Shown: in pieces, positions 13,418-32,109 of the stretch
Position numbering within the stretch: position 1 is the first letter of the stretch
How the letters are laid out: every line of letters starts with the position of its first letter
Assembly: GCF_003014615.1 (NCBI RefSeq)
Contig: NZ_PYGI01000020.1
Span: forward strand, 1 to 64,000
Direction: 5' to 3'
DNA: 64,000 nucleotides
From: Marinobacterium halophilum
GTDB lineage: Bacteria > Pseudomonadota > Gammaproteobacteria > Pseudomonadales > Balneatricaceae
The notes under the pieces: generated by a model
What the model saw: only the letters and a program-made list of their open reading frames with translations
The model's database searches: none
What the model was told of the DNA's origin: nothing
Program-made: the position numbers and the translations under genes

Positions 13418-13433
13418 TCGTCAAACCGGACTA
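13418..13433 (-). promoter_or_regulatory. candidate operator, GTCY-N4-RGAC family
   Basis: TCGTCA-AACC-GGACTA, about 115 bp upstream of kstD. It is one of seven similar inverted repeats upstream of steroid-cluster transcription units; the others are at 16434, 17885, 19144, 25862, 25895 and 32094. Confidence 0.5.
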
Positions 13434-13496
13434 AGCAGGGAGGAAAGCGGAGAACTGTTCGTGTGCAACAGCGATCATGGGGAGGTTGTAACGCAC

Positions 13497-13518
13497 AATG
13501 CCCGCACGTGCGGGCATT
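13497..13518 (-). terminator. palindrome after the second acyl-CoA ligase
   Basis: AATGCCCGCACGTGCGGGCATT is a perfect 22-bp palindrome 28 nt beyond the ligase stop. It has no T-run, so it may terminate weakly, stabilise the mRNA 3' end, or be a protein site upstream of kstD. Confidence 0.5.
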
Positions 13519-13546
13519 GTGATCGATATGATTGTGGAGCCCTGAA

Positions 13547-15247
13547 TCAGAGGAACAGCTGTTTCTTGATCTGTGCCTTGAGCAGTTTACCGGCCGGGTT
13601 ACGCGGCAGTTTTTCCTGCTGTACCGAGATCATCGACGGTACCTTGTAGCCCGCCAAATGCTCGGAAACGAAGGTCTGCAGTTCTGCTTCTTCCAGTTCT
13701 TCGCCGGGCTGGATCGCTACCACGGCCACCACGGCTTCACCGGTTTCTTCATCGGGCACACCCAGCACTGCTGCTTCGCGCACCAATGGATGGCGCAGCA
13801 GGCAGGATTCAACCTCGGCCGCAGCGATGTTTTCGCCCGCACGGTTGATCACGTCCTTGAGTCGGTCGACGATGTAGATGAAGCCTGCAGCATCCACATG
13901 GCCCAGGTCGCCCGTGTGCAGCCAGCCGTCACGTACCGCAGCCGCGGTAGCGTCATCATCATTCAGATATCCATCCATCATGGCTACCGAGCGCAGGCAG
14001 ATTTCGCCGTTCTCACCCGCTGCAACCGGCTCGCCTTCCATGTTCAGTACGCTGATCTGCATCAGCGGAGACTGCAGGCCGGAAGCGGTCGGGTGCATGC
14101 GGAACAGGTCACCGGAAATGCCCGCGCCCACACCGTTGGACTCGGTCATGCCGTAACCGATGCCCACCAACTGCTCCGGCATCGCATCCAGCACTTCATC
14201 GATCAGTCCCTGAGGCAAACCCGCGCCGCCGAAGCCCAGTCCGGCCATGCGGCCTTTAACCGCATCGCTGTGGAATTCGGGTTCACGCAACAGCTGCATC
14301 ACCATCGACGGTGCGCCGTTGAACTGGGTGACCTGCTCGGCCGCCATCAACTCCACGGCAGCCTTGGGGTCCCATTTGTGCATGAACACCAGGCGGCGAC
14401 CGGTACGCAACGCCGTCAGCAGCTGCGCATGCAAGCCACTGACATGGAACAGTGGAACCGCCGTCAGGATCACCGGCGTCAGCGCCATGGCCTGAATGCG
14501 CGCCAGTGCTTCCGGCGAGCTCATGGCCGATACGGCACTGATGTAGTCGATGTTGTACAGCGCCTGACAGACCGCCCGCTGCGATGACACCACCGCCTTG
14601 GCCCGACTGGTCGCGCCGGAGGTAAACAGGATCAGCGCCGGGTCTTCCGGTGCCGGATTGATCTCGGGCAGCGGCCCCACAGGGCGTGACTGCACCTTGT
14701 CGTAGCCATTGATCCGGGTGTTTTCAGCTTCAGCCTCATCACCCGGCCCCACCATCAATACATGGGTGCTGTCGGCGATATGCTCCAGCCCGATCCGCTT
14801 CAGACGGTCATGGTCACAAGCCAGTACTTTGGCATCCAGTGCATCCAGTGCGGCGTGCAGCTCTTCACCCAGACCAAAGCTGTTCAGCGGTGCCGGTACT
14901 GCCCCCAAACGCGCAGCCGCCACAAACACGGCTACCCATTCCGGGCGGTTACGCATGGCAATTGCGATGCGGTCACCAGGCTTGATGCCCAGTCCATACA
15001 TCCAGGATGCCAGCGCATCCACATGGGCGTAAAACCGGCCGAAACTCCAGCGGTCGCCCTGATATACCAGGAAACATGCATCATCTTCACGACGGGACCG
15101 GTTGATCACGTCGATGAGATGCGCAGGAGCCTGTTTATAGACCGTCTGCCGTCCACTCGGGGTATCGATTTCATCGAGTTCAAAGGGTGCCCCGGGTGCG
15201 GTCAGCTGCGCCTGTATCGCCGCAGTCTGTTCCATGATGGCATTCAT
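13547..15247 (-). CDS. acyl-CoA ligase (AMP-forming) of the steroid cluster
   Basis: The 566-residue ANL ligase has an altered P-loop, LFTSGATSRAKAVV, where the family usually shows TSGTTGxPKG. The remaining motifs are normal: GYGMTESNG, WLHTGDLGHVDAAGFIYIVDRLKD, and NPAGKLLK with the catalytic Lys. The N-terminal 40 residues extend beyond FadD-type enzymes. It could activate a steroid side chain or another propionate-type intermediate. It is separated by 35 nt from the MBL gene upstream and has its own A-rich leader at 15260-15269. Substrate unknown. Confidence 0.8.
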   Translation of the reverse strand: MNAIMEQTAAIQAQLTAPGAPFELDEIDTPSGRQTVYKQAPAHLIDVINRSRREDDACFLVYQGDRWSFGRFYAHVDALASWMYGLGIKPGDRIAIAMRNRPEWVAVFVAAARLGAVPAPLNSFGLGEELHAALDALDAKVLACDHDRLKRIGLEHIADSTHVLMVGPGDEAEAENTRINGYDKVQSRPVGPLPEINPAPEDPALILFTSGATSRAKAVVSSQRAVCQALYNIDYISAVSAMSSPEALARIQAMALTPVILTAVPLFHVSGLHAQLLTALRTGRRLVFMHKWDPKAAVELMAAEQVTQFNGAPSMVMQLLREPEFHSDAVKGRMAGLGFGGAGLPQGLIDEVLDAMPEQLVGIGYGMTESNGVGAGISGDLFRMHPTASGLQSPLMQISVLNMEGEPVAAGENGEICLRSVAMMDGYLNDDDATAAAVRDGWLHTGDLGHVDAAGFIYIVDRLKDVINRAGENIAAAEVESCLLRHPLVREAAVLGVPDEETGEAVVAVVAIQPGEELEEAELQTFVSEHLAGYKVPSMISVQQEKLPRNPAGKLLKAQIKKQLFL

Positions 15248-15259
15248 ATGGGTCTCCTC

Positions 15260-15269
15260 TTATTGTTGT
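15260..15269 (-). promoter_or_regulatory. A-rich leader of the acyl-CoA ligase gene
   Basis: Sense-strand ACAACAATAA directly before the GAGGAG SD of the ligase at 13547-15247. Candidate Hfq/Crc target. Confidence 0.5.
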
Positions 15270-15282
15270 AAGCGCAATTCAA

Positions 15283-16359
15283 TCATCGTGTCTGGTACCA
15301 GTCCAGCCCCTCATCATCCGTGATCCGCACCAGCTCACCGCGACGGCAGAGATAATGCAGGTGTGCCAGGGTTTCACCCAGACCCAACATCAACTCGATC
15401 GATTTGAGCTCGCGCCGGAACAGCCAACCCATGGCCTGATATCCGGTAAATTTTTCACCCTGCTTGAGCGGGGCCATCAGGTGTTGCAACTGGCGCTCGT
15501 GGTGCGCTTCAAGCTGCTCGATACGGGCATGCAGCCCGCGAAACACCTGACCATGCGCCGGCAGCACCAGTGTATCGGCAGCCAACTCTCGCAGCCGTTT
15601 CAATGACCGCAGCCACAAACTCAGCGGGTCTGCTTCCGGCTCGACATCGCTGACCAGAATATTGGAGCTGATGCCGGGCAAAACCTGATCACCGGCGAGC
15701 AGGATACGATCATCGGCGGCGTACAGGCAGGCGTGTTCCGGCGAATGACCTTCACCGATGACGACCTGCCATTCGCGCCCGCCAATACTAAGCGTTTCCC
15801 CGTCACGCAGACGGGTAAAACTGGGCGGGAAGTCAGGTATAAACGGGTCTTTGCGGTGCGAGCCGGTCATCTTCTCGAACCGTTCAAGCGGCATGCCCGC
15901 GCGCTGGAAGAATGCGCGCTGCGAGTCTTCCTTGACCACCGCGTTGGTACTGGCCAGTGCGCGCATGGTGAAATATTCGCCATGAGTCATGTACAGCGGC
16001 GCATCGAACTCGCTCATCAGCCAACTGGCGCAACCGGCATGGTCATAATGGAAATGGGTGCAGATCACGCCCTTGAGCGGCAGCCCCGGAAACTGTTGTG
16101 CCGCCAACGCGGTCCAGCATTCGCGTGAAACATCGGTATTCAACCCGGTATCAACCAGATACCAGCCATCGCCATCATCCAGCAGATACACATTGATGTG
16201 GTCCAGCGCCATCGGCATCGGGATACGGGTCCAGAACACCCCGGGAGCCACTTCGGTGACACCACCCACTCCCGTCGGTACCTCGAAGGGATACTCCAGC
16301 GCCTCGCGTTCGGCCGCCTTGCGCTGTTTGATCTGAGCCTCGGTTTCACGTTCCAGCAT
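15283..16359 (-). CDS. MBL-fold metallo-hydrolase
   Basis: The 358-residue metallo-beta-lactamase-fold hydrolase has THFHYDHAG (His-x-His-x-Asp-His, about residues 101-109), GEGHSPEH, LAGDQVLPG and the final PAHG histidine, so the full dinuclear metal site is present. The C-terminal 90 residues form a helical cap like that of glyoxalase-II-like thioesterases. In a CoA-thioester pathway it could be a thioesterase or lactonase; this is inference from context. It begins the minus-strand unit facing the MFS gene, with a candidate operator (16434-16449) in the shared promoter region. Confidence 0.8.
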   Translation of the reverse strand: MLERETEAQIKQRKAAEREALEYPFEVPTGVGGVTEVAPGVFWTRIPMPMALDHINVYLLDDGDGWYLVDTGLNTDVSRECWTALAAQQFPGLPLKGVICTHFHYDHAGCASWLMSEFDAPLYMTHGEYFTMRALASTNAVVKEDSQRAFFQRAGMPLERFEKMTGSHRKDPFIPDFPPSFTRLRDGETLSIGGREWQVVIGEGHSPEHACLYAADDRILLAGDQVLPGISSNILVSDVEPEADPLSLWLRSLKRLRELAADTLVLPAHGQVFRGLHARIEQLEAHHERQLQHLMAPLKQGEKFTGYQAMGWLFRRELKSIELMLGLGETLAHLHYLCRRGELVRITDDEGLDWYQTR

Positions 16360-16433
16360 GACTCTCTCCTGCTGTTGGGTAGGGGCACTACTTATTCATG
16401 TTCACATATGACGTGATTCACTCGGCAGTCACT

Positions 16434-16449
16434 ACGTCCAAAAGGACGA
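16434..16449. promoter_or_regulatory. candidate operator in the divergent MBL/MFS promoter
   Basis: ACGTCC-AAAA-GGACGA, inverted repeat of the GTCY-N4-RGAC type, in the 153-bp gap between the divergent genes at 16359 and 16513. Confidence 0.5.
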
Positions 16450-16485
16450 TGTTCAGCAGCACCACTCACGTAAGTTATCCACCAC

Positions 16486-16493: not shown

Positions 16494-16512
16494 ATTCCCA
16501 CGGAGCCCCAAC

Positions 16513-17844
16513 ATGTCGATCATGCCACCCACTGTAACCCGCAGGAGCCACTTCACCCTGGCTTTGCTGGCGTTGGTCTATGTCTTTTCGTTTATTGATC
16601 GGAATGTCATTGCCATTGTCATTGAACCGATCAAGCAGGAGTTTGGGGCTTCGGATACCCTGATGGGGCTACTGACCGGTCTCGCCTTTGCCGTTCTGTA
16701 CGGCATTCTCGGTATTCCGCTGGGTCGCATGGTCGATCAGGGTGCCGACCGCCGCAAGATGATCTCCATCTGCTGCGGCCTGTGGAGTATCGCCACCATG
16801 GCATGCGGCATGGCCACCAGCTTCTGGCAGTTATTGATTGCACGCATGACCGTCGCCGTCGGTGAAGCCGGTGGCATGGCCCCCTCGGTCTCCATGGTGT
16901 CGGACCTGTACCCCAAGAACCGCCGCTCTTCAGCCATGAGCATCTTCATGCTCGGCCCGCAGTTGGGCCTGCTGATCGCAATGGTGGTCGGTGGTTACAT
17001 TGCCCAGACCTATGGCTGGCGCACCACGTTCATTTTCTTCGGCATCCCCGGCGTACTGCTCGCCGCTACACTCTGGTTCTTCACCCGTGATCCAGGCCGA
17101 GGCGTATTCGACAGTGCCGAAGAACGCCGTCAGGCCATGGAAGCCCGCAACATCAAGGCCGGCCCGCAGATCAAGAGTATTTTCAAGGTACGCGCCTTCG
17201 TACTGCTCTGCTTTGGCGTGGCGGTGACCGGCGTAGTCGGCTACGGCTTCGGCATCTGGGCCCCGACTTTCCTGCTGCGGACCTACGAAATGCCCCTTGC
17301 CCACGCCGGCTTCCTGTTCGGTATTGCCAGCGGTGTGTTCGCCATACTGGGCACCCTGTTCTGTGGCTGGTTGTGTGATCGCCTGATCCGTCGCAACACC
17401 AATTGGCAGCTTGCACTGCCGATGCTGGGTATCCTGATCAGCCTGCCGATGGGCATCGCGTTCGTGCTTTGGCCGCAAACGTCGAGCTTCAGCGTCGGCA
17501 GCTTCAACGTCCCTTACGCCATGCTGTTCTGCGCCGGTTTTGCCTTTTTCCAGAGCTGGTGGCCCACCCTGACCTTTGCCGCTGTCAGCCACCTGCTGAC
17601 CAGTTCGCAGCGCGCTCTTGGCGCAGCTTTCGTCAACCTGTTCATGACCCTGATTGGCGCAGGCCTTGGCCCACTGCTGTCCGGCACCCTCAGTGACATG
17701 TACTCCAGCAGCATGGGGCCTGATGGCTTGCGCTGGGCACTGGCGACCGTGCTCTGCCTGCTGCTCATTCCCGCTCTGCTGTATGGCCTGGCCATTCGTC
17801 CCTATAAGCGTCGCCTGGAAGAACTGGATGCAAGCCTGACCTAA
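16513..17844 (+). CDS. MFS transporter, candidate steroid uptake
   Basis: The 443-residue protein has about 12 membrane helices. It has the motif-A-like loop GIPLGRMVDQGADRRKM after helix 2 and FIDRNVIAIVIEPIKQEF in helix 1, the pattern of spinster-like or hexuronate-type MFS proteins found in steroid and aromatic catabolic clusters. A second, clearly related copy lies at 30779-32101 and shares the string IEPIKQEF. Located in the inner membrane, it would import the substrate or an intermediate. The start has an upstream CGGAG SD. Confidence 0.82.
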   Translation: MSIMPPTVTRRSHFTLALLALVYVFSFIDRNVIAIVIEPIKQEFGASDTLMGLLTGLAFAVLYGILGIPLGRMVDQGADRRKMISICCGLWSIATMACGMATSFWQLLIARMTVAVGEAGGMAPSVSMVSDLYPKNRRSSAMSIFMLGPQLGLLIAMVVGGYIAQTYGWRTTFIFFGIPGVLLAATLWFFTRDPGRGVFDSAEERRQAMEARNIKAGPQIKSIFKVRAFVLLCFGVAVTGVVGYGFGIWAPTFLLRTYEMPLAHAGFLFGIASGVFAILGTLFCGWLCDRLIRRNTNWQLALPMLGILISLPMGIAFVLWPQTSSFSVGSFNVPYAMLFCAGFAFFQSWWPTLTFAAVSHLLTSSQRALGAAFVNLFMTLIGAGLGPLLSGTLSDMYSSSMGPDGLRWALATVLCLLLIPALLYGLAIRPYKRRLEELDASLT

Positions 17845-17884: not shown

Positions 17885-17900
17885 TCGTCCAAACAGAGTA
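17885..17900 (+). promoter_or_regulatory. candidate operator upstream of the Rieske gene
   Basis: TCGTCC-AAAC-AGAGTA, 65 bp before the Rieske ATG. One mismatch in the right arm of the GTCY-N4-RGAC motif. Confidence 0.42.
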
Positions 17901-17937
17901 TGCCCCGGGCCGACGCAAAATTCAGAATCGGACGGGT

Positions 17938-17964: not shown

Positions 17965-19059
17965 ATGGCAACATCCCAGGACTACCGGCTCGGTGATTAC
18001 ACCTTCCCTCGCGGCTGGTTCATGATTGCGACCTCTGACGACATCAACACGCACAAGCCGCTGGCCGTGCGCTTCTTTGGTCGAGACTTCGCGCTTTACC
18101 GCGGCCAGGAAACCGGCAAGGTGGTTCTGCTCGACGGTTACTGCCCGCACATGAAAACACACCTGGCAGCGCCGAATGATACGTCTTACGTGATCATCGA
18201 CGGTGGCGGCACCAACATCGAAGGCGACAGCATTCGCTGCCCTTACCACGCCTGGCGCTTCGGCCCGGATGGCCAGTGTGACGACATCCCTTACCATGAT
18301 GGTCCGATCCCGAAAACGGCCTGTGTGAAGTCTTGGACCGTGAAAGAAAGCCTGGGCGCAATCTGGGTCTGGCATGATCCGGAAGGTGGCGAGCCGGAGT
18401 GGGAACACCCGTCCCTGCCACAGTGGGATGACGAGTCCTGGGTACAGTGGAAATTCGATGACCTCGGTATTCTTGAGCAGCACCCGCAGGAAGTGATCGA
18501 CAACATCTGCGACTATGGCCACCTGAGCCCGATCCACGGTTCCACCGTACAGCGCTATGAAAACGAGTTCAAAGGACACCTCGCCACTCAGCGCCAGTGC
18601 GGCCCGCACCGCACCCTGGTCGGTAAAGACGGTGCCAGCCCGATTCTGCATACCATCACCACCTATAACGGTCCGGGTGTACTGATCTCTTATCTGACCG
18701 GTTACTACGAGTCGATTCTGATGATCACTCACACCCCGGTCGAAGATGGCAGCGTCCGCGTATGGCACGCCCTGCTCGTGAAGTCACCGAACGACAACGC
18801 CAAAGTCACCGTGGAAGACAAGATTGCAGCCGCCCAGTTCCAGAACTCCAGCCGCCTGGCATTTGCTCAGGACTTCGAGGTATGGGTCAACAAGGCACCG
18901 TGCCTCAACGGCATGTTCATCCCCAGCGACGGCCCGTTCATGAAAGCCCGCATCTGGTACAAGCAGTTCTACAACCCGCGCGCCCGTGCGCCCGAGTTTC
19001 TGGACAAGTGTGAAGGCGTCTACGTACCCAAGGGTACCGAGCCCTACACCCAGAACTGA
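17965..19059 (+). CDS. Rieske oxygenase, KshA-like
   Basis: The 364-residue oxygenase component has a Rieske [2Fe-2S] domain with CPH (60-62) and CPYH (92-95). The mononuclear iron site is DNICDYGHLSPIH, which fits the N-x2-D-x2-H-x4-H pattern, plus a late Asp in AQDFEVW. The spacing between the Rieske pairs is 29 residues, about 12 more than usual. The frame is open 36 codons upstream, but the ATG at 17965 has an AAGGAG SD. The best candidate reaction is 9alpha-hydroxylation of 3-ketosteroids, which with KstD opens ring B. No reductase partner (KshB) lies in the window. Confidence 0.82.
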   Translation: MATSQDYRLGDYTFPRGWFMIATSDDINTHKPLAVRFFGRDFALYRGQETGKVVLLDGYCPHMKTHLAAPNDTSYVIIDGGGTNIEGDSIRCPYHAWRFGPDGQCDDIPYHDGPIPKTACVKSWTVKESLGAIWVWHDPEGGEPEWEHPSLPQWDDESWVQWKFDDLGILEQHPQEVIDNICDYGHLSPIHGSTVQRYENEFKGHLATQRQCGPHRTLVGKDGASPILHTITTYNGPGVLISYLTGYYESILMITHTPVEDGSVRVWHALLVKSPNDNAKVTVEDKIAAAQFQNSSRLAFAQDFEVWVNKAPCLNGMFIPSDGPFMKARIWYKQFYNPRARAPEFLDKCEGVYVPKGTEPYTQN

Positions 19060-19143: not shown

Positions 19144-19159
19144 TAGTCTTTTCAGACGA
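19144..19159 (+). promoter_or_regulatory. candidate operator upstream of the DUF1329 gene
   Basis: TAGTCT-TTTC-AGACGA lies 109 bp upstream of the ATG at 19269 and shares the GTCY-N4-RGAC core with six other sites. A-rich AACAAAAATAAC follows at 19196-19207. Confidence 0.5.
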
Positions 19160-19268
19160 TTTATCCCGCCACCGATTACCAAACAATGCAACCACAACAA
19201 AAATAACACCAACTGCCGCCCGCTTACGACACTAAGTCTGACAGACCGGGTTCACATCTGGAGGCAAG

Positions 19269-20660
19269 ATGAGAAAGCAGCAATTATGGAAACCACTCGC
19301 CGCAGCTATCGCGCTGGCTCTGTCCGCATCCGCACACGCCAAGGTCGCACCGGAAGAAGCCAGTAAGCTGGGCAATGAACTAACCTGCATGGGTGCCGTC
19401 GCCGCCGCCAACGAAGCCGGAACCATTCCCGCCTTCTCTGGCAAATGGCTGGGTACACCGCCGGGCATCGACTACACCCCCAATGTTGGCCAGCACCCGA
19501 TCGATCCCTATCCCGAAGACAAGCCGCTGTATGTCATCAACGGCAAGAACTGGGAGCAATACAAGGAACACCTGACCCCCGGTCAGATCGCCCTGCTCCA
19601 GCGTTTCCCTGACAGCTTCGAACTACCGGTCTATGAAGGTCGTCGCGACTTCCGTTACCCGGACGAAATCTGTGAAGTGGCCAAGAAAAACGCGGTTGAA
19701 GCCGAACTGATTGATGGCGGCATGGGCTTCACCGGCTACATGGGCCCGGTACCGTTCCCGATTCCGTCTGGCGAAAATCAGGCAATGCAGGTACTGGCCA
19801 ACCACAACTATCCGTACCGCGCCTTTACCGAGCAGATGGAAAGACGTGACCTGGCCGATGTGAGTGCCAGCGGCAATATTACCTGGGGCCAAACCCACAA
19901 CGCGGCACTGAACGTGATCACGTTGCCGGACCAAATCGGCAAGCCCATTGGCGAAATCATGGCCTACAGCGACACCGGCACCCTGCTGCCGACTCGTGAC
20001 AAGGGCAAGCGTACTGTTTCCATCGAACCGATGAACTTTGCTCAGGGTCAGCGTCTGGCCTGGACCTACAACCCGGGTACACGCCGTGTACGCCAGTTGC
20101 CCGAGTATGGTTTTGACACCCCGGCTGCAGGTACCTCCGGCAAGATGGTCATCGACCAGGACCGCCTGATGAACGGTTCGCCAGAGCGTTATGATTGGGA
20201 ACTCAAGGGCAAGAAAGAGATTTACGTCCCGGCCAACGCCTACCGCCTGCATGAAGAAGGCGTTGCCTATGACGATCTGCTGACGCCAAACCATGCCAAC
20301 CCTGATTTCATGCGTTACGAACTGCGCCGCGTCTGGGTACTGGAGGGCAACCTCAAGAGCACCCACCGTCACAAGTACGGCAAGCGTGTACTGTTTATCG
20401 ATGAAGACACCTGGCATGGCGTCATGAGTGACTTCTACGACACCCGTGGCGAACTCGTCAACCATGCGTTCCTGAACTACTACTACGCCTATGACATGAG
20501 TGCATGGCAGGCGGGCAGCAGCTTCTACCACGACCTCACCACCGGTGGTTACATCGCCTACAACCTGTTCCAGGATCTGGAAAAGGGGCCGATCTTGAAC
20601 GCCGGCGGCCTGGAGCCTGACAACTTCACCCCGGCCGCTCTGCGCCGTCGTGCACACTAA
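19269..20660 (+). CDS. DUF1329 exported protein
   Basis: The 463-residue protein begins with a signal peptide (MRKQQLWKPLAAAIALALSA, cleavage near AHA-KV) and otherwise follows the DUF1329 family (LolB-like fold, outer-membrane associated), including TYNPGTRRVRQLPEYGFD. DUF1329 genes are habitually paired with DUF1302 genes in clusters for steroids, terpenoids and other hydrophobic substrates. They are thought to act in envelope passage, though no mechanism is proven. It is 18 nt upstream of the DUF1302 gene and has a GGAGGCAAG SD. A terminator isolates it from the Rieske gene. Confidence 0.85.
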   Translation: MRKQQLWKPLAAAIALALSASAHAKVAPEEASKLGNELTCMGAVAAANEAGTIPAFSGKWLGTPPGIDYTPNVGQHPIDPYPEDKPLYVINGKNWEQYKEHLTPGQIALLQRFPDSFELPVYEGRRDFRYPDEICEVAKKNAVEAELIDGGMGFTGYMGPVPFPIPSGENQAMQVLANHNYPYRAFTEQMERRDLADVSASGNITWGQTHNAALNVITLPDQIGKPIGEIMAYSDTGTLLPTRDKGKRTVSIEPMNFAQGQRLAWTYNPGTRRVRQLPEYGFDTPAAGTSGKMVIDQDRLMNGSPERYDWELKGKKEIYVPANAYRLHEEGVAYDDLLTPNHANPDFMRYELRRVWVLEGNLKSTHRHKYGKRVLFIDEDTWHGVMSDFYDTRGELVNHAFLNYYYAYDMSAWQAGSSFYHDLTTGGYIAYNLFQDLEKGPILNAGGLEPDNFTPAALRRRAH

Positions 20661-20678: not shown

Positions 20679-22211
20679 ATGACAGCATTTAAACCGAACC
20701 TGCTGGCCCTCGCAGTACTGGCCGCAGGCATCACAACCCAAGCCCAGGCCGGTGAAAGCATCGACATGGGCAATGACCTGACCCTGGACTGGAAAGGCAC
20801 CGTCAGCTATGGCGCAGGCGTACGCCTGGAAGACCCTTCCGATGCGAGCTACATGCAGTCCAGTGGCAACAGTAATTTTGATCAGGGCGACATGATCAAT
20901 AACCGCCTGTCACTGCTGATGGAAGGCCGCCTGCACAAGGGCAACAGCGGCCTGGTGATGTCCGCCAGCACCTTCTATGACGACGTGTACCAGGACAGCA
21001 AGTTCTCGGATGACGCCGAGAAGTACCATGGTGGTTACACCCGCTTGCTGGACCTGTACGGCTACACCACTTTTGAATTGGGTAACGAACGTTACCTGAA
21101 CCTGCGCGCCGGTAAACATGTAGTCGCATGGGGTGAAGCCCTGTTCATGCCCAGCATGTCACTGGCACAGGGCCCGTCCGACGGCACCAAATCCGGTATC
21201 CCGGGCGTAGAAGTCAAGGATATCCTGCTGCCGGAAGACCAGGTCTCCATGCAGTTGGAAATGAACCCGAACTGGTCAATTCTGGCGCATGCACAGTACA
21301 ACTGGCATCCGGTCCAGGTATCTGAGCCCGGCGCTTTCCTCAGCACCAGTGATGCTGTCGGCGAAGGTGCTACCTGTCTGTCAGCGGCACCCGGTGAGCC
21401 CTGTGGCTTTGGTGTTCGCGGCTCTGATATCGAGCCGGATGAAATGGGTCAGTGGGGCATCGGCACACGTTTCCGTACCAGCCTGGAAACAGAGTGGGGC
21501 CTTTACTACATGAATTATCATGACCGTATCCCGTTGACCCAGTACAACGCCCTGAGCAATACCTATCAGATACGCTATTTCGATGATATTCAGCTGTACG
21601 GCGCAACCATGACCACCAGCTTGGGCATGGCATCCATTGCGGGCGAGGTCACCTACAAGAAAGGCGCACCGGTTCTCGTCAGCACTCAGCTGCCAGTGGC
21701 TCCAGGCTACAGCATCACCATGCCATCAGCTGCGCGTGCCGATATCATGCAAACCAACGTTAACGCCATCGTCAACTTTGGTCGTTCCTGGATTGCCGAT
21801 ACGGTTAACCTGACCGCCGAACTGTCCTATGTGGATATCATGGATGTAGAAAAAACCGGTTTGAACGGTATCCCGGGTACCGCAACCGATGATCTCTTCT
21901 ACAGCAACCATGGCCTGGCTTTCTCAAGCAGCCTTTCCCTGAGCTATCCCGGCGCGACTGAAAACTGGGATCTGAGCGTGCCGATCGCTTACTCCCGCCA
22001 GATCAGTGGCCGTACCATCACTGGCGGCGTGGGTGGTGAAGGCGATCACCGTTTCAGTGTCGGTGCTGACTTTACTCACCGCACCGGTGTACAGGTAGGC
22101 GTTAAATACCTGACTTACATGGGCAGCGCCAGTAATGATGATCTACCCTATGAACAGCTTTCGCTGTCTGACCGCGACAACCTGTCCCTGTCAGTGAAGT
22201 ACGCCTTCTAA
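20679..22211 (+). CDS. DUF1302 outer-membrane beta-barrel protein
   Basis: The 510-residue protein has a signal peptide (ALAVLAAGITTQAQA-GE). DUF1302 features follow: WKGTVSYGAGVRLEDPS, alternating beta-strand periodicity, LRAGKHVVAWGEALFMP, and a C-terminal SVKYAF ending in Phe as outer-membrane barrels do. It is proposed to be a porin-like channel for hydrophobic substrates and is co-transcribed with the DUF1329 gene. A Rho-independent terminator follows at 22257-22283. Confidence 0.85.
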   Translation: MTAFKPNLLALAVLAAGITTQAQAGESIDMGNDLTLDWKGTVSYGAGVRLEDPSDASYMQSSGNSNFDQGDMINNRLSLLMEGRLHKGNSGLVMSASTFYDDVYQDSKFSDDAEKYHGGYTRLLDLYGYTTFELGNERYLNLRAGKHVVAWGEALFMPSMSLAQGPSDGTKSGIPGVEVKDILLPEDQVSMQLEMNPNWSILAHAQYNWHPVQVSEPGAFLSTSDAVGEGATCLSAAPGEPCGFGVRGSDIEPDEMGQWGIGTRFRTSLETEWGLYYMNYHDRIPLTQYNALSNTYQIRYFDDIQLYGATMTTSLGMASIAGEVTYKKGAPVLVSTQLPVAPGYSITMPSAARADIMQTNVNAIVNFGRSWIADTVNLTAELSYVDIMDVEKTGLNGIPGTATDDLFYSNHGLAFSSSLSLSYPGATENWDLSVPIAYSRQISGRTITGGVGGEGDHRFSVGADFTHRTGVQVGVKYLTYMGSASNDDLPYEQLSLSDRDNLSLSVKYAF

Positions 22212-24349: not shown

Positions 24350-25795
24350 TCAATCCTTGGTAACCTGAGCCTGCATCATCGCTTCAAACTGGTCGTGATG
24401 CGGCGGCAGCATGCCCCACTCACCGCGCGGATCATACGCCGGTGCGCGGTACACGGTGCGGGTATGGCTGAACTCCAGGAAGCCTTCATGGCCATGGTAG
24501 TGGCCCATGCCGGAGCCACCAACGCCACCGAAGGGCGCTTCGTGCATCGCCGCATGCATCAGCAGGTCATTGACGGTCACGCCGCCGGACAGGGTTTGCG
24601 TCAGCACCTGCTGCTCTTCGTCCTTGTCCTGGCCGAAGTAGTACAGTGCCAACGGGCGCTCGCGACCATGAATATCATCCAGCACCGCATCAATCGTGTC
24701 GTAGGACTGGATCACCAGTGCCGAGCCGAAGATCTCTTCCTGCATGATGACACTGTCAGCCGGCGGGTTGATCACCAAACGCAACGGACGCTTGCGGCTG
24801 GTGCCGGTCGCTTCAGGATGGCTGGATTCAATACGTACACCGCGATCACGCGCATCAGCCAGATAGGCCTCAACTCGCTGCAAATGGTTGTCATTAATGG
24901 CAGCCACCATGTCGGGGTTGTCGTCCACGCTCGGGTAAAGAGTACGGAACTGCTGCTGCAACTGAGCGATAACGCTCTCCAGCTGCTCGGCCGGTACATA
25001 GAGCACATCCGGGCAGATACAGATCTGGCCACCGTTGGTGCCCTTGGCAATCGCCAGTCGGCGGCAGGCGTCTTGAACATCGGCACTGCGGCCCATGACC
25101 ACCGGCGACTTGCCACCCAACTCCAGGGTGACCGGCACCAGATTCTCGGCGGCGGCACGCATGATCTTGCGCCCAACGGCGGTGCTGCCGGTGAAGACCA
25201 GATGATTGAACGGTGATCCGGCGAACGCCGCCCCAATGGCAGCATCACCGACCGCCACACCAACCACGGCCGGGTCCAGGTGAGCGGATACCAGTTCGGC
25301 AACCAGTGCTGCGGTAAGCGGTGCCACTTCCGACGGTTTTAAAATCGCGCGGTTACCTGCCCCCAGCGCACACGCCAGCGGGCTAAACAGGGTAAACAGC
25401 GGCGCATTCCAGGTGCCGATGATGCCAACGCTACCCTTGGGCTGGTGCAGCACTTCAGCCTGGCCACCCAGCTGATCGTAAGGGGAAAACACCGTACGTG
25501 GATCGTCTTGCATCCACTGTTCGAGGTGATCACGTGTATGCTTCAGCGACGCCAGCGACCCCAGAATATCGTTCATGATAGAGAACGCACGTGGACGCCC
25601 ACCCGCTGAACCTTCACCGAAGTCGGCGCCCATGGCATCGGCCAGCGCATCGCTGTGGTCAACCAGCAGGTCGATTACCTGCTGGATGCGTGCCTTGCGG
25701 GTCGCGGCACTGACCGTGCCTTCACGGTTGAACGCCTGCTGCTGTTCGGTCAGCAGTTCACGAATGCCTTCAGGGGTGGTTACGGCTGCAGCCAT
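24350..25795 (-). CDS. aldehyde dehydrogenase, coniferyl-aldehyde-DH type
   Basis: The 481-residue NAD(P)-dependent aldehyde dehydrogenase has IGTWNAPLFT, VTLELGGKSPVVM (catalytic Glu) and NGGQICICPDVLYVP, with the nucleophilic Cys about residue 257. The membrane-lacking, short layout and PFGGVGGSGMGHYHG near the C-terminus are typical of the CalB/coniferyl aldehyde DH branch. It could oxidise an aldehyde formed from the steroid side chain. It is divergent from the flavin-reductase gene. Two operator-like repeats and an A-rich leader (25813-25824) lie in the shared gap. Confidence 0.87.
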   Translation of the reverse strand: MAAAVTTPEGIRELLTEQQQAFNREGTVSAATRKARIQQVIDLLVDHSDALADAMGADFGEGSAGGRPRAFSIMNDILGSLASLKHTRDHLEQWMQDDPRTVFSPYDQLGGQAEVLHQPKGSVGIIGTWNAPLFTLFSPLACALGAGNRAILKPSEVAPLTAALVAELVSAHLDPAVVGVAVGDAAIGAAFAGSPFNHLVFTGSTAVGRKIMRAAAENLVPVTLELGGKSPVVMGRSADVQDACRRLAIAKGTNGGQICICPDVLYVPAEQLESVIAQLQQQFRTLYPSVDDNPDMVAAINDNHLQRVEAYLADARDRGVRIESSHPEATGTSRKRPLRLVINPPADSVIMQEEIFGSALVIQSYDTIDAVLDDIHGRERPLALYYFGQDKDEEQQVLTQTLSGGVTVNDLLMHAAMHEAPFGGVGGSGMGHYHGHEGFLEFSHTRTVYRAPAYDPRGEWGMLPPHHDQFEAMMQAQVTKD

Positions 25796-25861: not shown

Positions 25862-25877
25862 TCGTCCGGACGGACGA
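25862..25877. promoter_or_regulatory. candidate operator 1 of the ALDH/flavin reductase gap
   Basis: TCGTCC-GGAC-GGACGA, a GTCY-N4-RGAC inverted repeat. A second copy starts 33 bp away, about three helical turns, on the same face of the DNA. Confidence 0.55.
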
Positions 25878-25894: not shown

Positions 25895-25910
25895 TAGTCC
25901 ATAAAGACGA
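25895..25910. promoter_or_regulatory. candidate operator 2 of the ALDH/flavin reductase gap
   Basis: TAGTCC-ATAA-AGACGA, partner of the site at 25862. Confidence 0.55.
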
Positions 25911-25972
25911 TGATGCCCCTTGTGGCGACTGCAATACTCGGTTCAGACTCATCGGCCAGCAGAGGCAATCAC

Positions 25973-26941
25973 ATGACCCAGAACAGTTTCGACCCTAAAG
26001 CCTTTCGTACGGCACTGGGCACCTTCACCACCGGTGTCACCATCATCACTGCTCAAGCGGCCGACGGCACGCCGGTAGGGATTACCGCCAACAGCTTCAA
26101 CTCGGTCTCGCTGGACCCGCCGATGGTGCTCTGGAGTCTGGCCAAAACCGCCAATAGCCTGCCGGTGTTTACCGAGAGCAAGCATTGGAACGTACATGTT
26201 CTGTCAGTTGAACAGGAAGCCCTTTCCGGCCGCTTTGCCTCCCGTGGTGAAGACAAATTCGCCGGTCTGACTCTGGACGACGGCATCACCAACGCCCCGC
26301 TGCTGCCCGGCAGCACCGCCCGCTTCCAGTGCCGCACCGCGTTCATGCATGACGGCGGTGACCACATTATATTCATCGGCGAAGTTCTGGGCTTTGATCA
26401 AAGCGACCTGCCACCGCTGGTATTCCAGAGCGGCCAGTATGCGCTGGCGGCCCGCAAGCCGCGCGAGGAAGTGCGCCTGACCCAGTCAGAGCCGCCGCCC
26501 GAGTGCAGCTACACCGAAGACCTGCTGGGCTACCTGCTGGGACGTGCCCACTTCCAGATGGTCAACCGCCTCAAGGGCCTGCTGGATGAACAAAAGCTGG
26601 CACAGGAGCAATTTTTCATCCTGTCAGTACTGTGTATCCGCGATCGGATGACGCTGAGCGAGATCAACGAATATATCGCTTACACCGGTTACTCCGTCGA
26701 TGAAAACGACATGCAGGTGCTGACCGACGGTGGCCATGTTGTCATCGAACAGGACCGGTATCGCATGACCGCCGATGGCCGCGAAGCCTCGCTGCACCAG
26801 ATCGCCCATGCCAAGGCGATTGAAGAAGAGCTGGTCGAAGCGCTGGGCCAGGGCGACGCCATGGCATTGAAATTGCTGCTCAAGCGCCTGATCGAACGTA
26901 CCGATCCCGGTCTGCCCGACTTGTGGGCTGTATCCTCTTAA
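25973..26941 (+). CDS. flavin reductase with C-terminal MarR-like domain
   Basis: The 322-residue protein has an N-terminal flavin-reductase-like FMN/FAD domain (about 1-165: FTTGVTIITAQ, GITANSFNSVSLDPPMVLWSL, HWNVHVLSVEQ). It is followed by about 150 residues that read as a winged-helix MarR-like domain (LLGRAHFQMVNRLKGLLDEQKL, FFILSVLCIRDRMTLSEINEYI). This is the layout of C1, the reductase of Acinetobacter 4-hydroxyphenylacetate hydroxylase, where the extra domain senses the substrate. It probably supplies reduced flavin to a steroid-phenol hydroxylase (HsaA/TesA type) encoded elsewhere. The ATG at 25973 is preferred over one 21 codons upstream because of an AGAGG SD. Confidence 0.82.
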   Translation: MTQNSFDPKAFRTALGTFTTGVTIITAQAADGTPVGITANSFNSVSLDPPMVLWSLAKTANSLPVFTESKHWNVHVLSVEQEALSGRFASRGEDKFAGLTLDDGITNAPLLPGSTARFQCRTAFMHDGGDHIIFIGEVLGFDQSDLPPLVFQSGQYALAARKPREEVRLTQSEPPPECSYTEDLLGYLLGRAHFQMVNRLKGLLDEQKLAQEQFFILSVLCIRDRMTLSEINEYIAYTGYSVDENDMQVLTDGGHVVIEQDRYRMTADGREASLHQIAHAKAIEEELVEALGQGDAMALKLLLKRLIERTDPGLPDLWAVSS

Positions 26942-26973: not shown

Positions 26974-27744
26974 ATGTCCATTCTGAATAGCTTCAACCTG
27001 GAAGGCCAAGTCGCCGTCATTACCGGTGCTGGCCGTGGTTTAGGCCGGGCCATCGCCCTGGCCTACGCGGAAGCCGGTGCCGATGTGGTCTGCTCGGCAC
27101 GCACCCTGGCCGACGTGGAAGCAGTCGCTGAAGAAGTGCGGGCGCTGGGACGCCGCGCGCTGGCGGTCAGCTGTGACGTCAACGACCAGGCTCAGCGCGA
27201 AGCACTGGTTGCAGCAGCCGTGGAAGGCATGGGCAAGATCACGCACCTGGTGAACAACGCCGGTGGCTCCGGCCCCAATGATCCGCTGAAGATGACTCCG
27301 GCAGACTTCACCGCCGTCATGGAATTCAACGTCACCTCCGCCTACTCACTGACCCAGCTATGTGTGCCGCACATGCGCACCGCCGGCGGCGGTAACGTGA
27401 TCAACATCACCTCCGGTGCGGCCCGTTACATCCAGAAACACTTCAGCGCCTACGGCACCGCCAAGGCGGCACTGACCCACATGACCAAGCTGCTGGCGCA
27501 GGATTTCGCACCGGATGTTCGCGTGAATGCGATCGCTCCCGGCCCGATCCGTACCGCAGCGCTGGAAAACGCCGCACCGGCCGCCATGCTCGAAACCATG
27601 GCCAAGAACACGCCGCTGCAGCGTATCGGTGAACCTGAAGATATCGCGGCTGCCGCACTGTATTTTGCCACCCCGGCGTCCAGCTGGGTGACCGGTAAAG
27701 TGATTGAAGTGGATGGCGGTGCCGAAGGCAGCGTCTGGGGCTGA
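26974..27744 (+). CDS. short-chain dehydrogenase/reductase, hydroxysteroid-DH-like
   Basis: The 256-residue classical SDR has TGAGRGLG (residues 18-25), the NNAGG strand, NITSGAARY, YGTAK and the PGPIRT loop, and ends with VTGKVIEVDGGAEGSVWG. The overall pattern is like 7alpha-hydroxysteroid dehydrogenases and 3-oxoacyl-ACP reductase-like SDRs. It sits 32 nt after the flavin reductase and 10 nt before the hydratase, so it is part of the operon 25973-30686. A role in oxidising a hydroxyl on a ring fragment is likely; position and substrate are not determined. Confidence 0.82.
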   Translation: MSILNSFNLEGQVAVITGAGRGLGRAIALAYAEAGADVVCSARTLADVEAVAEEVRALGRRALAVSCDVNDQAQREALVAAAVEGMGKITHLVNNAGGSGPNDPLKMTPADFTAVMEFNVTSAYSLTQLCVPHMRTAGGGNVINITSGAARYIQKHFSAYGTAKAALTHMTKLLAQDFAPDVRVNAIAPGPIRTAALENAAPAAMLETMAKNTPLQRIGEPEDIAAAALYFATPASSWVTGKVIEVDGGAEGSVWG

Positions 27745-29642: not shown

Positions 29643-29657
29643 GCGGGAGATCACACG

Positions 29658-30686
29658 ATGAATTTGAACGGCAAGAAAGTCACCCTGCACGACATGAGCC
29701 TGCGCGACGGCATGCACGCCAAGCGCCACCAGATCAGCCTGGACGAGATGGTCAACGTTGCCACGGCGATGGATGACGCGGGTATGCCGCTGATCGAAGT
29801 CACCCACGGTGACGGCCTCGGCGGTGCGTCTTTGAACTACGGTTTCCCGGCTCACACGGATGAGGAATACCTCGGCGCTGTCGTGCCGAAGATGAAGAAC
29901 GCCAAGATCTCCGCCCTGCTGCTGCCGGGCATCGGGACACTTGACCATCTGAAGATGGCCAAAGATCTCGGTGTTTCCACTATCCGCGTCGCCACCCACT
30001 GCACCGAAGCGGATGTGTCTGAACAGCACATCGGCATGGCCGCCAAGATGGAATTGGATACCGTTGGCTTCCTGATGATGGCGCACATGGTCAGCCCGGA
30101 GAAAATTCTGGAACAGGCCAAATTGATGGTCAGCTACGGTGCCAACTGCATCTATGCCACCGATTCCGCCGGTTACATGCTGCCGGACGAAGTGACTGCC
30201 AAGATCGGTCTGCTGCGTGCGGAGCTGCCGTCCAATGTTGAAGTGGGCTTCCATGGCCACCACAACATGGGCATGGCGATTGCCAACTCGCTGGCCGCGA
30301 TTGACGCCGGGGCATCCCGTATTGACGGCTCCGTTGCCGGTCTGGGTGCCGGTGCCGGTAACACGCCGCTGGAAGTGTTCTGCGCCGTACTCGACCGCAT
30401 GGGTGTCGACACCGGTATCGATCTGTACAAGATCATGGACGTGGCCGAAGACCTGGTCGTGCCGATGATGGATCAGCCGATCCGCGTCGACCGTGATGCC
30501 CTGACGCTGGGTTATGCCGGTGTGTACTCGTCGTTCCTGCTGTTTGCCCAGCGGGCACAGAAGAAATACGGCATCCCCGCCCGTGATATCCTGCTCGAAC
30601 TGGGCCGTCGCGGCACCGTGGGCGGACAGGAAGACATGATTGAAGATCTGGCGCTGACCATGGCCAAGGAGAAGGGCCTGATCTGA
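29658..30686 (+). CDS. 4-hydroxy-2-oxovalerate aldolase (HsaF/TesG/MhpE type)
   Basis: The 342-residue DRE-TIM aldolase has [15 protein letters not shown] (Arg/Asp of the metal site, about 11-25), [11 protein letters not shown] with two metal-binding His (about 197-207) and the C-terminal communication domain with [13 protein letters not shown]. It splits 4-hydroxy-2-oxo acids into pyruvate and an aldehyde that is passed to the preceding dehydrogenase. Length and order match the standard pair. It ends the operon before a hairpin at 30699-30720. Confidence 0.93.
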
Positions 30687-30698
30687 CAGGCGATTGAA

Positions 30699-30720
30699 AA
30701 CCGGCCTGTCCAGGCCGGTT
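30699..30720 (+). terminator. hairpin after the aldolase gene
   Basis: AACCGGCCTG-tc-CAGGCCGGTT, a perfect 10-bp stem 12 nt after the stop. Only two T follow, so termination may be partial. Confidence 0.65.
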
Positions 30721-30778
30721 CTGCACGCTAACAGGTTCCGGCACAACAGTCGGCCCTGTATGCACAAGGAGAGTATCC

Positions 30779-32101
30779 GTGGTCACCATCGGTTCCACTT
30801 CACCCGCATCCGCCTGGCGCCGCCACGGATTGCTGCTCCTGCTCACCCTGCTCTACACCGATACCTTTATCGGCCGTCAGATCATGGCGGTGATGATTGA
30901 ACCGATCAAGCAGGAGTTCAACGCCAGCGATACCGCCATGGGGCTGGTCTCGGGGCTTGCGTTTGCCGGCGTCTATGCTCTGTTTGGGCTCGGCGCGGGC
31001 CGTCTTGCCGACCGCTTGCCACGCACCCGCGTGCTGGCTGTCTGTGCCCTGCTCTGGAGTATCACCACTATTCTGTGCGGTTTCACAACCGGATTTATCA
31101 TGCTGGTCGCTGCCCGTATGCTGGTAGCCATCGGTGAATCGGCGGTCACCCCCAGTTCCATCTCCATGATTGCCGACCTCTATCCGGTCAACCGCCGCGC
31201 CTTTGCCATCAGCTGTTACAGCACCGCTCCCACACTGGCCGCCATTATCGCCATGAGTGCCGGTGCCTGGCTGGTGGATCAGTACGGCTGGCGAGTCGGC
31301 TTTATTGTGGTCGGCATACCCGCCTGCCTGATTGCCGTGGTCATGCTGCTGATGCGCGACCCGCAACGCGGTACGTGGGACGACCACAGCAGCGAACCGG
31401 CACTGCCGCTGTCTCTGATGGCTACCCTCAAATCCCTGTGGGCGATCAAACCCTATCGCTTTCTGATCCTTGCCGCCGGCCTAAGCACCTTGGGTGCCAA
31501 TGCCTACGGCATGTGGAACGCTACCTTCCTGGTCCGTTCCCATGGGCTGGATCTGCAGCAGGCCGGTATTCTGGCCGGGTTTGTCGGGGGCGGCTCGGCA
31601 GCACTGGGCATGCTGTTCAGCGGCTGGTTCACTGACCGCCTGATCAGCGCTCATCCCCGTTGGCAATTGCTGATTCCGCAGGTCGGGCACGGCATCGGCA
31701 TTGTGGCCATGGCGACTTATCTGCTCTGGCCCGCCGACAGCACCTTTATGCTGGCAGGTCATACCATACCAACCGCCATGATCTGGTGCGCACTGAATGG
31801 CTTTTTTGCCGTCTGGTGGGTCGGCCCCTGCTTCAGCATGATTACCCGGATCGTGTCACCCGACAGCCGCGCCGTAGCCATGGCCTGCCAAACCGTACTG
31901 GTAACGTTGCTAGGCGTTGGCATCGGCCCGCTGGCCGTCGGTGCACTGAGCGATCTGATGGCACCATTGCTGGCTGCCGAGTCGCTGCGCTACTCCTTGC
32001 TGATCGGCTGTATCAGTACGGCACTGGCCATGGGGATGCTGTTCATGGTGGGATACTGCCAACGACAAGCACGCATGAAACCACAGGCTGCTCTAGTCTG
32101 A
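30779..32101 (+). CDS. MFS transporter, paralogue of the 16513 gene
   Basis: The 440-residue protein has about 12 membrane helices, with FIGRQIMAVMIEPIKQEFNAS in the first and LGAGRLADRLPRTRVL as motif A. It is clearly a relative of the transporter at 16513-17844. Translation starts at a GTG (30779) with AAGGAG 6 nt upstream. It follows the aldolase gene after a hairpin and precedes hsdA. Two related carriers in one cluster suggest different substrates or intermediates, or uptake versus export. Confidence 0.82.
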   Translation: MVTIGSTSPASAWRRHGLLLLLTLLYTDTFIGRQIMAVMIEPIKQEFNASDTAMGLVSGLAFAGVYALFGLGAGRLADRLPRTRVLAVCALLWSITTILCGFTTGFIMLVAARMLVAIGESAVTPSSISMIADLYPVNRRAFAISCYSTAPTLAAIIAMSAGAWLVDQYGWRVGFIVVGIPACLIAVVMLLMRDPQRGTWDDHSSEPALPLSLMATLKSLWAIKPYRFLILAAGLSTLGANAYGMWNATFLVRSHGLDLQQAGILAGFVGGGSAALGMLFSGWFTDRLISAHPRWQLLIPQVGHGIGIVAMATYLLWPADSTFMLAGHTIPTAMIWCALNGFFAVWWVGPCFSMITRIVSPDSRAVAMACQTVLVTLLGVGIGPLAVGALSDLMAPLLAAESLRYSLLIGCISTALAMGMLFMVGYCQRQARMKPQAALV

Positions 32102-32109
32102 ATGGACGA
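32094..32109 (+). promoter_or_regulatory. candidate operator upstream of hsdA
   Basis: TAGTCT-GAAT-GGACGA overlaps the stop codon of the MFS gene, 64 bp before the hsdA start. GTCY-N4-RGAC family. Confidence 0.5.

What the first reader, a model, noticed from the sequence alone, without database searches (positions are those of the whole stretch)
13418..32109. Seven copies of one 16-bp inverted repeat upstream of steroid-cluster units: a candidate regulon operator
Sites TCGTCAAACCGGACTA (13418), ACGTCCAAAAGGACGA (16434), TCGTCCAAACAGAGTA (17885), TAGTCTTTTCAGACGA (19144), TCGTCCGGACGGACGA (25862), TAGTCCATAAAGACGA (25895) and TAGTCTGAATGGACGA (32094) share GTCY-N4-RGAC, nearly always with a fixed 4-nt spacer. 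They lie in front of kstD, the MBL/MFS divergent gap, the Rieske gene, DUF1329, the ALDH/flavin-reductase gap (two sites 33 bp apart) and hsdA. I saw none outside the cluster. It differs from the KstR and KstR2 operators I know from actinobacteria. No regulator gene lies within 5.6-34.3 kb, so the binding protein must be encoded elsewhere.
Basis: partly seen in the sequence, partly recalled or inferred. Interest (0 to 1): 0.8.

Follow-up and report, generated by a model that had tools for sequence, protein, structure and literature searches.

The report
Steroid-degradation gene switch site
Seven short mirror-image DNA sites in front of steroid-degrading genes are very probably the docking sites of one activator protein, whose likely gene was found elsewhere in the genome and which goes with the same site in many other Proteobacteria, so the control of bacterial steroid breakdown can now be tested directly.

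Summary
All seven 16-bp sites are where stated. The 4-bp spacer is not chance: genome-wide, TMGTCY-N4-RGACKA occurs 11 times exactly, against 7 in total for the 12 other spacings from 0 to 12. Nine of the 11 lie at steroid-gene promoters, including ones outside the window next to hsaC and hsaD relatives and at the head of an etf/regulator gene run. The likely binding protein is a LuxR-type (GerE) regulator on contig C3, with a 62%-identical copy on C25. Around 80 homologues from Gamma- and Betaproteobacteria the exact site occurs 124 times, against 7 for ten other spacings; 117 are intergenic. A -10-like box starts 23-24 bp after the site in 88 of 107 promoters (control offsets: mean 8.4), which centres the site near -42.5/-43.5, where class II activators bind. 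So it is most likely an activator box, not a repressor operator. The regulator resembles TeiR/TesR of Comamonas, a known activator; I saw no published binding site. Binding, inducer and TeiR orthology are untested.

The parts
13418..13433 (-). activator box facing kstD (TAGTCCGGTTTGACGA on the - strand)
   Evidence: matrix score 22.6; kept in M. sediminicola L094:6877, one mismatch
16434..16449 (.). box in the divergent MBL/MFS gap, may serve both directions
   Evidence: kept in L094:3901, one mismatch; matrix scores 15.4 (-) and 12.0 (+), the weakest of the seven
17885..17900 (+). box facing the KshA-like Rieske gene
   Evidence: matrix score 20.2; two-mismatch counterpart L094:2453
19144..19159 (+). 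box facing the DUF1329/DUF1302 genes
   Evidence: matrix score 25.7; kept in L094:1190
25862..25877 (-). box nearest the aldehyde dehydrogenase gene (first of the doublet)
   Evidence: matrix 19.9 on -, 19.4 on +, so direction rests on position; kept in L093:15565
25895..25910 (+). box facing the flavin reductase gene (second of the doublet)
   Evidence: matrix 30.2 on +, 14.8 on -; kept in L093:15532
   Evidence: matrix 26.9; kept in L093:9531
13389..13394 (-). candidate -10 box CATGAT, offset 24 from the site
17923..17928 (+). candidate -10 box CAGAAT, offset 23
19182..19187 (+). candidate -10 box AACAAT, offset 23
25933..25938 (+). candidate -10 box AATACT, offset 23
32132..32137 (+). candidate -10 box CATAGT, offset 23
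11574..13304 (-). KstD-like 3-ketosteroid dehydrogenase (NF005882 595 bits, below its cut-off of 788)
15283..16359 (-). metallo-beta-lactamase-fold protein
16513..17844 (+). MFS transporter
17965..19059 (+). Rieske oxygenase with KshA C-terminal domain
   Evidence: PF19298, 204.5 bits; searched from 17857
19269..20660 (+). DUF1329 protein, followed by DUF1302 protein 20679-22211
24350..25795 (-). aldehyde dehydrogenase
25973..26941 (+). flavin reductase; best NCBIfam match NF045919 (209.5 bits), HsaB model NF045630 136.7 bits, both below cut-off; followed by SDR, FAA-hydrolase, acetaldehyde dehydrogenase and aldolase genes to 30686

Best explanation
The sites are the binding box of a LuxR-type one-component activator ('REG': GAF-like sensor domain, probably a PAS-like domain, GerE helix-turn-helix) of the TeiR/TesR kind. 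A dimer binds TAGTCY-N4-RGACGA(TG), centred about 42.5 or 43.5 bp before the transcription start and overlapping a poor -35 region (A-TG, then no consensus), and recruits RNA polymerase (class II activation) when a steroid or steroid breakdown product is sensed. One box serves each promoter; where two divergent promoters are driven separately there are two boxes (25862 by ALDH, 25895 for the flavin reductase). In many genomes REG is itself in the regulon (positive feedback). Shown by computation: the sites, their spacing, their conservation, their link to REG and the -10 distance. Inferred: binding by REG, activation, dimer, the -35 reading, inducer.
For: Spacing control: 11 vs 7 over 12 other spacings in the own genome; 124 vs 7 over ten other spacings in 1,512,731 bases around 80 REG homologues. 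117 of 124 intergenic although 10.4% of those bases are non-coding. 88 of 107 sites have xAxxxT at offset 23 or 24; control pairs of offsets mean 8.4, maximum 18. The gene-side end carries an extra TG (70%, 78%); the other end shows it more weakly (as CA, 50% and 36%). REG copies lie on C3 and C25. Of 194 genomes of the order, the five with REG at 280 bits or more (this one included) hold 11, 9, 5, 22 and 10 exact sites, against a mean of 1.3 in the 135 without a hit. Around 25 distant REG relatives, one-mismatch sites number 9 at spacing 4 and 0-2 at other spacings 0-8. Blind dyad count in 501 non-redundant intergenic stretches: all 25 top rows are pieces of this motif. In the M. sediminicola cluster the regulators I recognised are REG and a LysR gene; only REG has a counterpart in the stretches held of this genome (judged by BLAST and by eye, with Pfam for a few genes). 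A box stands at the head of the gene run that holds REG in 37 of 73 loci tested.
Against: No binding, expression or start-site data. The 80 loci were chosen by REG, so another regulator that always travels with REG would give the same counts. The recognition-helix region is invariant in the 79 copies matched, but one of the two peptides used to find these loci lies in it, so this is partly built in. Three of the eight oriented window promoters (16434 both ways, 25862-) lack xAxxxT at 23/24. In 36 of 73 loci no box was found at the head of REG's gene run (5 of these runs reach an edge). Two of 11 exact genomic matches and 25 of 34 one-mismatch matches are not known to be at steroid promoters. 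M. sediminicola has one exact site far from the cluster, at 1,813,013. Genome G094 has 9 exact sites and no REG hit; relatives of 200-280 bits go with only 2.6 sites on average. TeiR has been described as a membrane-located kinase (PMC6678751, passages); REG has no predicted membrane stretch.
Confidence: 0.84

Rival explanations
1. The sites are operators of a repressor (TetR/GntR type, as KstR and KstR2 in actinobacteria) that is released by a steroid metabolite.
For: Dyad sites close to promoters are typical of repressors; KstR/KstR2 play this role in actinobacteria (PMC8399759 section 4).
Against: A fixed 22-23 bp gap between site and -10 in 88 of 107 promoters is what an activator needs; repressor sites usually vary in position (general knowledge). 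No TetR/GntR gene was noticed in the M. sediminicola cluster, but it was not searched gene by gene. PMC8399759 states that KstR1 and KstR2 homologues are absent from bile-acid-degrading Proteobacteria.
Confidence: 0.07
2. The sites are bound by an activator other than REG that travels with the same clusters.
For: The loci were selected through REG, so linkage alone cannot tell the two apart; a LysR gene lies in the M. sediminicola cluster; G094 has 9 exact sites without a REG hit.
Against: That LysR gene had no match among the proteins called in the stretches of this genome that I held. Sites go with REG across orders and on a Vibrio plasmid. No second motif appears among the 25 top dyad rows.
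Confidence: 0.08
3. Chance matches or RNA hairpins (for example terminators).
For: The motif is a dyad and could form a small stem; 25 of 34 one-mismatch matches in the genome are not known to be at steroid promoters.
Against: Spacing control 124 vs 7; position before starts, commonest distance 60-79 bp (44 of 104); orthologous conservation.
Confidence: 0.01

Closest known systems
TeiR / TesR of Comamonas testosteroni (LuxR-type activator of steroid degradation)
   Same: LuxR-type regulator, gene inside the steroid cluster, positive regulator of most identified steroid genes (passages of PMC6678751, PMC8700777, PMC6895838).
   Different: I could not obtain the TeiR sequence, so orthology is untested. 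TeiR is reported as a polar membrane kinase; REG has no predicted membrane stretch and a GAF / PAS-like / HTH layout. No TeiR binding site appears in the passages I saw.
TeiR-like regulators of Pseudomonas stutzeri Chol1 (C211_RS11295)
   Same: Reported in the steroid cluster; its deletion delays cholate degradation (unpublished data cited in PMC8399759 section 4). A 64% REG homologue lies in Stutzerimonas stutzeri K1 with two exact sites nearby.
   Different: Different strain, sequence not compared; no binding site given in that section.
LuxR-type class II activators (LuxR at luxI, TraR; recalled)
   Same: Dyad centred near -42.5, GerE helix-turn-helix, activation.
   Different: Other motif; acyl-homoserine-lactone sensor in LuxR, GAF-like and PAS-like domains here.
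KstR / KstR2 (TetR repressors of actinobacteria)
   Same: Regulon sites in front of many steroid genes.
   Different: Repressors with other motifs (recalled); no such gene recognised here.
EdcR of Caenibius tardaugens (estradiol repressor)
   Same: Palindromic site in steroid promoters of a proteobacterium.
   Different: Its proposed palindrome TnnCnnTACnAnTnGTAnnGnnA overlaps the -10 box (PMC8700777, passages); different sequence and place.

Membership tests
LuxR/GerE-type transcription regulator | C-terminal GerE helix-turn-helix domain | tested here: met
   PF00196 24.4 bits against a cut-off of 23.5, residues 327-370; 24.4 bits also for REG2 and the M. sediminicola copy. Only just above the cut-off.
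TeiR/TesR steroid regulator | Sequence orthology to TeiR of C. testosteroni | not testable with these tools
   TeiR paper not held; no Comamonas chromosome reached.
TeiR/TesR steroid regulator | Gene lies in a steroid-degradation cluster | tested here: met
   The C3 copy lies with hsaA-like, reductase and etf genes.
TeiR/TesR steroid regulator | Needed for induction of steroid genes | not testable with these tools
   Needs mutants; the site position agrees with activation.
TeiR/TesR steroid regulator | Membrane location as reported for TeiR | tested here: inconclusive
   No 19-residue window above 1.6 on the Kyte-Doolittle scale; maximum 1.18, MFS control 2.5. A prediction only, and TeiR itself was not put through the same test.
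Class II activator-dependent promoter | Activator dyad centred about -42 with fixed distance to -10 | tested here: met
   88 of 107 sites with -10 taken as xAxxxT; transcription starts themselves not mapped.
Class II activator-dependent promoter | Loss of expression without the activator | not testable with these tools
   Wet-lab test.
GAF-sensor one-component regulator | GAF fold in the N-terminal part | tested here: met
   Residues 1-177 of a predicted model (mean pLDDT 72.9) match GAF-containing chains, best Z 13.5, rmsd 3.4, 164 aligned; the lone GAF domain 3ci6_A Z 12.1, rmsd 3.3, 150 aligned.
GAF-sensor one-component regulator | PAS fold in the middle part | tested here: inconclusive
   Order of strands and helices looks PAS-like and Foldseek lists EL222 and VqmA, but with TM-scores of 0.20-0.36.
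KstR / KstR2 regulon | TetR-type repressor gene in the cluster | tested here: inconclusive
   None among the genes examined, but not every gene of the clusters was searched.

The most novel reading that the evidence does not exclude
REG is a soluble one-component steroid receptor: its GAF-like domain binds a steroid or a steroid catabolite directly and the protein switches on a dispersed, conserved regulon through this one box in Gamma- and Betaproteobacteria, chromosomal or plasmid-borne. That would be a bacterial functional analogue of a steroid hormone receptor and would revise the membrane-kinase view of TeiR.
Probability: 0.45. Interest if true: 0.75.

Novelty: new member of a known kind. 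Interest (0 to 1): 0.64.

Why it matters
[quoted passage not shown] A defined box, a named candidate regulator and a promoter model make this testable with one gel shift and one reporter. The box can also point to unknown steroid genes (for example uptake proteins) in genomes that carry the regulator, and could serve to build steroid biosensors.

Tried and rejected
Chance: rejected by the spacing controls. The tool's own control (pattern read backwards) was not used, because that reversed pattern is very common in this composition (410 against 45).

Repressor operator: considered, disfavoured because of the fixed -10 distance.

TeiR itself: the 2004 paper is not held; a Comamonas plasmid record was fetched as a way to the genus but could not serve as a centre. 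The plasmid search showed no Comamonas among the 30 of 271 records listed.

Negative control: in 8 HsaA-family loci from other genomes of the order (the 8 for which loci were given, of 54 genomes with a hit) no site with at most one mismatch was found; these genes may not be steroid genes, so this is weak. Seven genomes picked by me with strong HsaA-family hits but no REG hit (G003, G047, G088, G013, G116, G165, G187) have 2, 2, 0, 0, 1, 0 and 0 exact sites.

Results against: of the 34 one-mismatch matches in the genome, 25 are not known to be at steroid promoters; 11 of these were read in context (7 in called genes, 4 between genes) and 14 were not read. G094 has 9 exact sites without a REG hit. 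The second M. weihaiense copy (L153) has only two-mismatch sites; 12 of 80 loci have no exact site, 11 of these have one-mismatch sites.

Rows dropped before counts: of 124 exact sites 7 fell in called genes; a further 10 had no called gene start within 400 bp or too little sequence, leaving 107; 104 of these are distinct. Seven of 80 loci without a called REG gene were left out of the autoregulation count. Gene calls are from a simple script of mine, not a standard gene finder.

Literature: in six searches no listing or passage that I saw reports a binding site for TeiR/TesR or this motif; the library lacks most subscription journals, and most listed papers were not opened. Of the papers cited I saw passages only, except section 4 of PMC8399759, read in full.
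Full report
Check. The seven 16-mers are present exactly as reported. In 64 kb, TMGTCYNNNNRGACKA with at most one mismatch finds these seven and nothing else. In the whole genome (G000, 3,653,655 bases in 47 contigs; the window is C20:1-64000) there are 11 exact matches with spacing 4 and 7 in total with the 12 other spacings between 0 and 12. With up to one mismatch there are 45.

Where the others are. Of the 11 exact matches four are in the window and five more are at steroid-type genes: C3:167058 between an SDR and an enoyl-CoA hydratase gene; C3:181782 at the head of the SDR / FMN oxidoreductase / etf / REG gene run (it lies just after the end of the kshB-like reductase gene); C15:4125 before an SDR, in the gap shared with hsaD; C25:27120, which faces the second regulator copy 374 bp away; C35:1051 before hsaC. 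Two are not at known steroid promoters: C4:148695 lies in a called gene, C14:93309 in an open frame. Of the 34 one-mismatch matches nine are at steroid-type promoters (three in the window; C3:175840, 184243, 184297; C15:4161; C25:23886, 32315); of the other 25, 11 were read in context and 14 were not. Two intergenic ones (C7:63787, C13:1574) precede SDR genes (the C13 one judged by eye from its translation) and may belong to the regulon; the frame at C13 is interrupted. HsaA, HsaC and HsaD are named from NCBIfam models whose scores (364.5, 287.5 and 193 bits) lie below the curated cut-offs of 450, 450 and 400, so they are relatives, supported by context.

Doublets. The matrix scan gives direction: 25895 scores 30.2 towards the flavin reductase and 14.8 the other way. 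25862 scores 19.9 towards ALDH and 19.4 the other way, so its direction rests on position. The C15 pair (4125 towards the SDR, 4161 towards hsaD) and the C3 pair (184243 towards hsaA, 184297 towards a BNR-repeat gene) look the same. The simple reading is one box per promoter.

Regulator. A 385-aa GerE/LuxR-type protein is encoded at C3:176804-177958 and a 62%-identical one at C25:25604-26731. Among 194 genomes of the order 59 have a relative at E 1e-10 or better, five of them (this genome included) with 280 bits or more. Those five have 11, 9, 5, 22 and 10 exact sites; the 135 without a hit average 1.3, the 18 with 200-280 bits 2.6 and the 36 weaker ones 2.4. In 369 genomes drawn from the class two pass E 1e-70, one of them this genome.

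Conservation. In the same-genus genome G037 (its contig length, 3,554,135, equals that of Marinobacterium sediminicola NZ_CP092123.1) the sites lie at the orthologous promoters, with REG in the same region; the kshA one differs by two mismatches. Eight of its nine exact sites lie within 81 kb; the ninth is at 1,813,013. In three genomes of two other families (G139, G007, G122) sites, some with one mismatch, lie before relatives of hsaC, hsaD, hsaA or the flavin reductase, the Rieske gene, the hydratase, DUF1329 and REG itself, besides others before genes without a match.

Wide test. A scan of GTDB genomes found 510 relatives of REG; the best 80 were kept: Marinobacterium, Shewanella, Halomonas, Zoogloea, Thauera, Aromatoleum, Azoarcus, Pseudomonas, Stutzerimonas, Vibrio, Thalassotalea, Glaciecola, Aliiglaciecola, Endozoicomonas and others. 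In their 1,512,731 bases the exact motif occurs 124 times at spacing 4; at spacings 0-3 and 5-10 it occurs 0, 5, 0, 0, 0, 0, 1, 0, 0 and 1 times. 68 of 80 loci have an exact site; 78 of 80 have an intergenic one with at most one mismatch; the exact site of L212 fell inside a called gene and L153 has only two-mismatch sites. 117 of 124 are intergenic. Among genes starting within 400 bp, the commonest best matches in this genome are the hsdA-like SDR (31), none (28), hsaA (20), the hydratase (15), the BNR gene (14) and the SDR at 26974 (14). In whole genomes reached through these loci, counted from the listing, spacing 4 against 3 and 5 together is 19 to 2 (Thauera sp. 2A1), 15 to 2 (Zoogloea dura), 6 to 2 (Vibrio sinensis), 13 to 1 (Pseudomonas moorei) and 9 to 0 (M. 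weihaiense); the sixth, S. stutzeri K1, was cut off in the listing.

Promoter anatomy. In 107 sites with a nearby gene start, xAxxxT stands at offset 23 in 48 and at 24 in 45; 88 have one or both, against a mean of 8.4 and a maximum of 18 for control pairs of offsets. If that is the -10 hexamer (-12 to -7), the dyad is centred at -42.5 or -43.5. The commonest distance from site centre to start codon is 60-79 bp (44 of 104). The gene-side end is followed by TG (70% T, 78% G); the other end shows the mirror CA more weakly (50%, 36%). In the window itself 5 of 8 oriented promoters have the -10. That LuxR boxes lie at -42.5 is recalled, not looked up.

Out-of-sample matrix. A matrix from 89 sites outside Marinobacterium, scanned over 316,696 held bases of this genome (stretches chosen for holding pattern matches), scores the window sites 15.4 to 30.2 in their best direction; the best score in 640 kb of random first-order sequence is 14.9. 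16434 is thus only just above chance by this test, but it is conserved in M. sediminicola. A blind dyad count over 501 intergenic stretches gives only pieces of this motif in its 25 top rows, which are strand pairs of fewer dyads.

Protein. The 79 copies found with a helix pattern in the 80 loci read RRNTARAHLR[SA]IF[SC]KT; a peptide from this region was used to find the loci, so the invariance is partly built in. In six copies aligned beforehand, 40-86% identical to REG1, RNTARAHLR is also invariant. An AlphaFold model from 30 homologues (mean pLDDT 72.9, pTM 0.52) shows a GAF-like N-terminal domain (Z up to 13.5), a PAS-like middle part that is less certain, and the helix-turn-helix. No membrane stretch is predicted. 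No relative of solved structure was found by sequence at E 0.01.

Known work. TeiR/TesR is a LuxR-type positive regulator in C. testosteroni (passages); one paper cites a report that tesR-like genes are only in C. testosteroni (PMC6895838, passage), whereas a review mentions two TeiR-like genes in P. stutzeri Chol1 and a deletion phenotype (PMC8399759 section 4). A 2025 paper calls the LuxR-type regulator of the pdc cluster similar to TesR (PMC12239570, passages); the pNL2 regulator gene next to a luciferase-like monooxygenase and a steroid isomerase is a 26% relative of REG. So REG is probably TeiR-like, but I could not compare it with TeiR.

Verdict. Real, conserved regulon site; most likely a class II activator box of a TeiR-like LuxR-type regulator. 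The kind is known; the site, its promoter geometry and its spread appear to be new, within the limits of the library searched.

Noticed in passing
window 3400-4356 and 1-6000: IS110-family transposase in a stretch of lower G+C (45% against 58%) at the left end of the contig; a 94% identical gene lies at the matching place in M. sediminicola (L094:16121-17071), so contigs C20 and C3 may be neighbours in the chromosome.
   Followed up: partly
window 36510-42542: Gene run with 4Fe-4S, iron alcohol dehydrogenase, flavin/NAD, Oxidored_q6 and NiFe-hydrogenase-like proteins just after the steroid cluster; three of its genes lie beside the cluster in the stretch read of M. sediminicola.
   Followed up: no
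L020 (C25:15001-35000): Second, lower-G+C (52%) partial steroid cluster with duplicate MBL, MFS, SDR and regulator genes and a stretch where my gene finder called almost nothing; the copy of the C3:181782 box stands in front of the second regulator.
   Followed up: partly
L227 (NZ_CP140104.1, Vibrio alfacsensis plasmid): A 174-kb plasmid from a turbot-gut Vibrio carries the regulator (60%) and a steroid-type gene cluster with boxes before acyl-CoA dehydrogenase (one mismatch), etf and hydratase/SDR genes.
   Followed up: partly
L018:18204-19184 with L019:2-1639; L095:1310-3766 in M. sediminicola: BNR-repeat protein followed by an MMPL-family membrane protein whose M. sediminicola copy scores just over the cut-off of the sterol-sensing-domain model; a box precedes the pair here and the BNR gene in other genera; candidate steroid transport or export pair.
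   Followed up: partly
G030, G027, G151: Distant relatives of the regulator (27-34% identity) lie within about 5 kb of HsaA-family monooxygenase genes; around 25 distant homologues one-mismatch sites at spacing 4 number 9, at other spacings 0-2. A wider family with a drifted motif is possible.
   Followed up: partly
L029:6788 (C7:63787) and L026:1574 (C13:1574): Two further sites before SDR-type genes outside the clusters, both with a positive -10 score; the frame at C13 is interrupted by a stop after 47 codons.
   Followed up: partly
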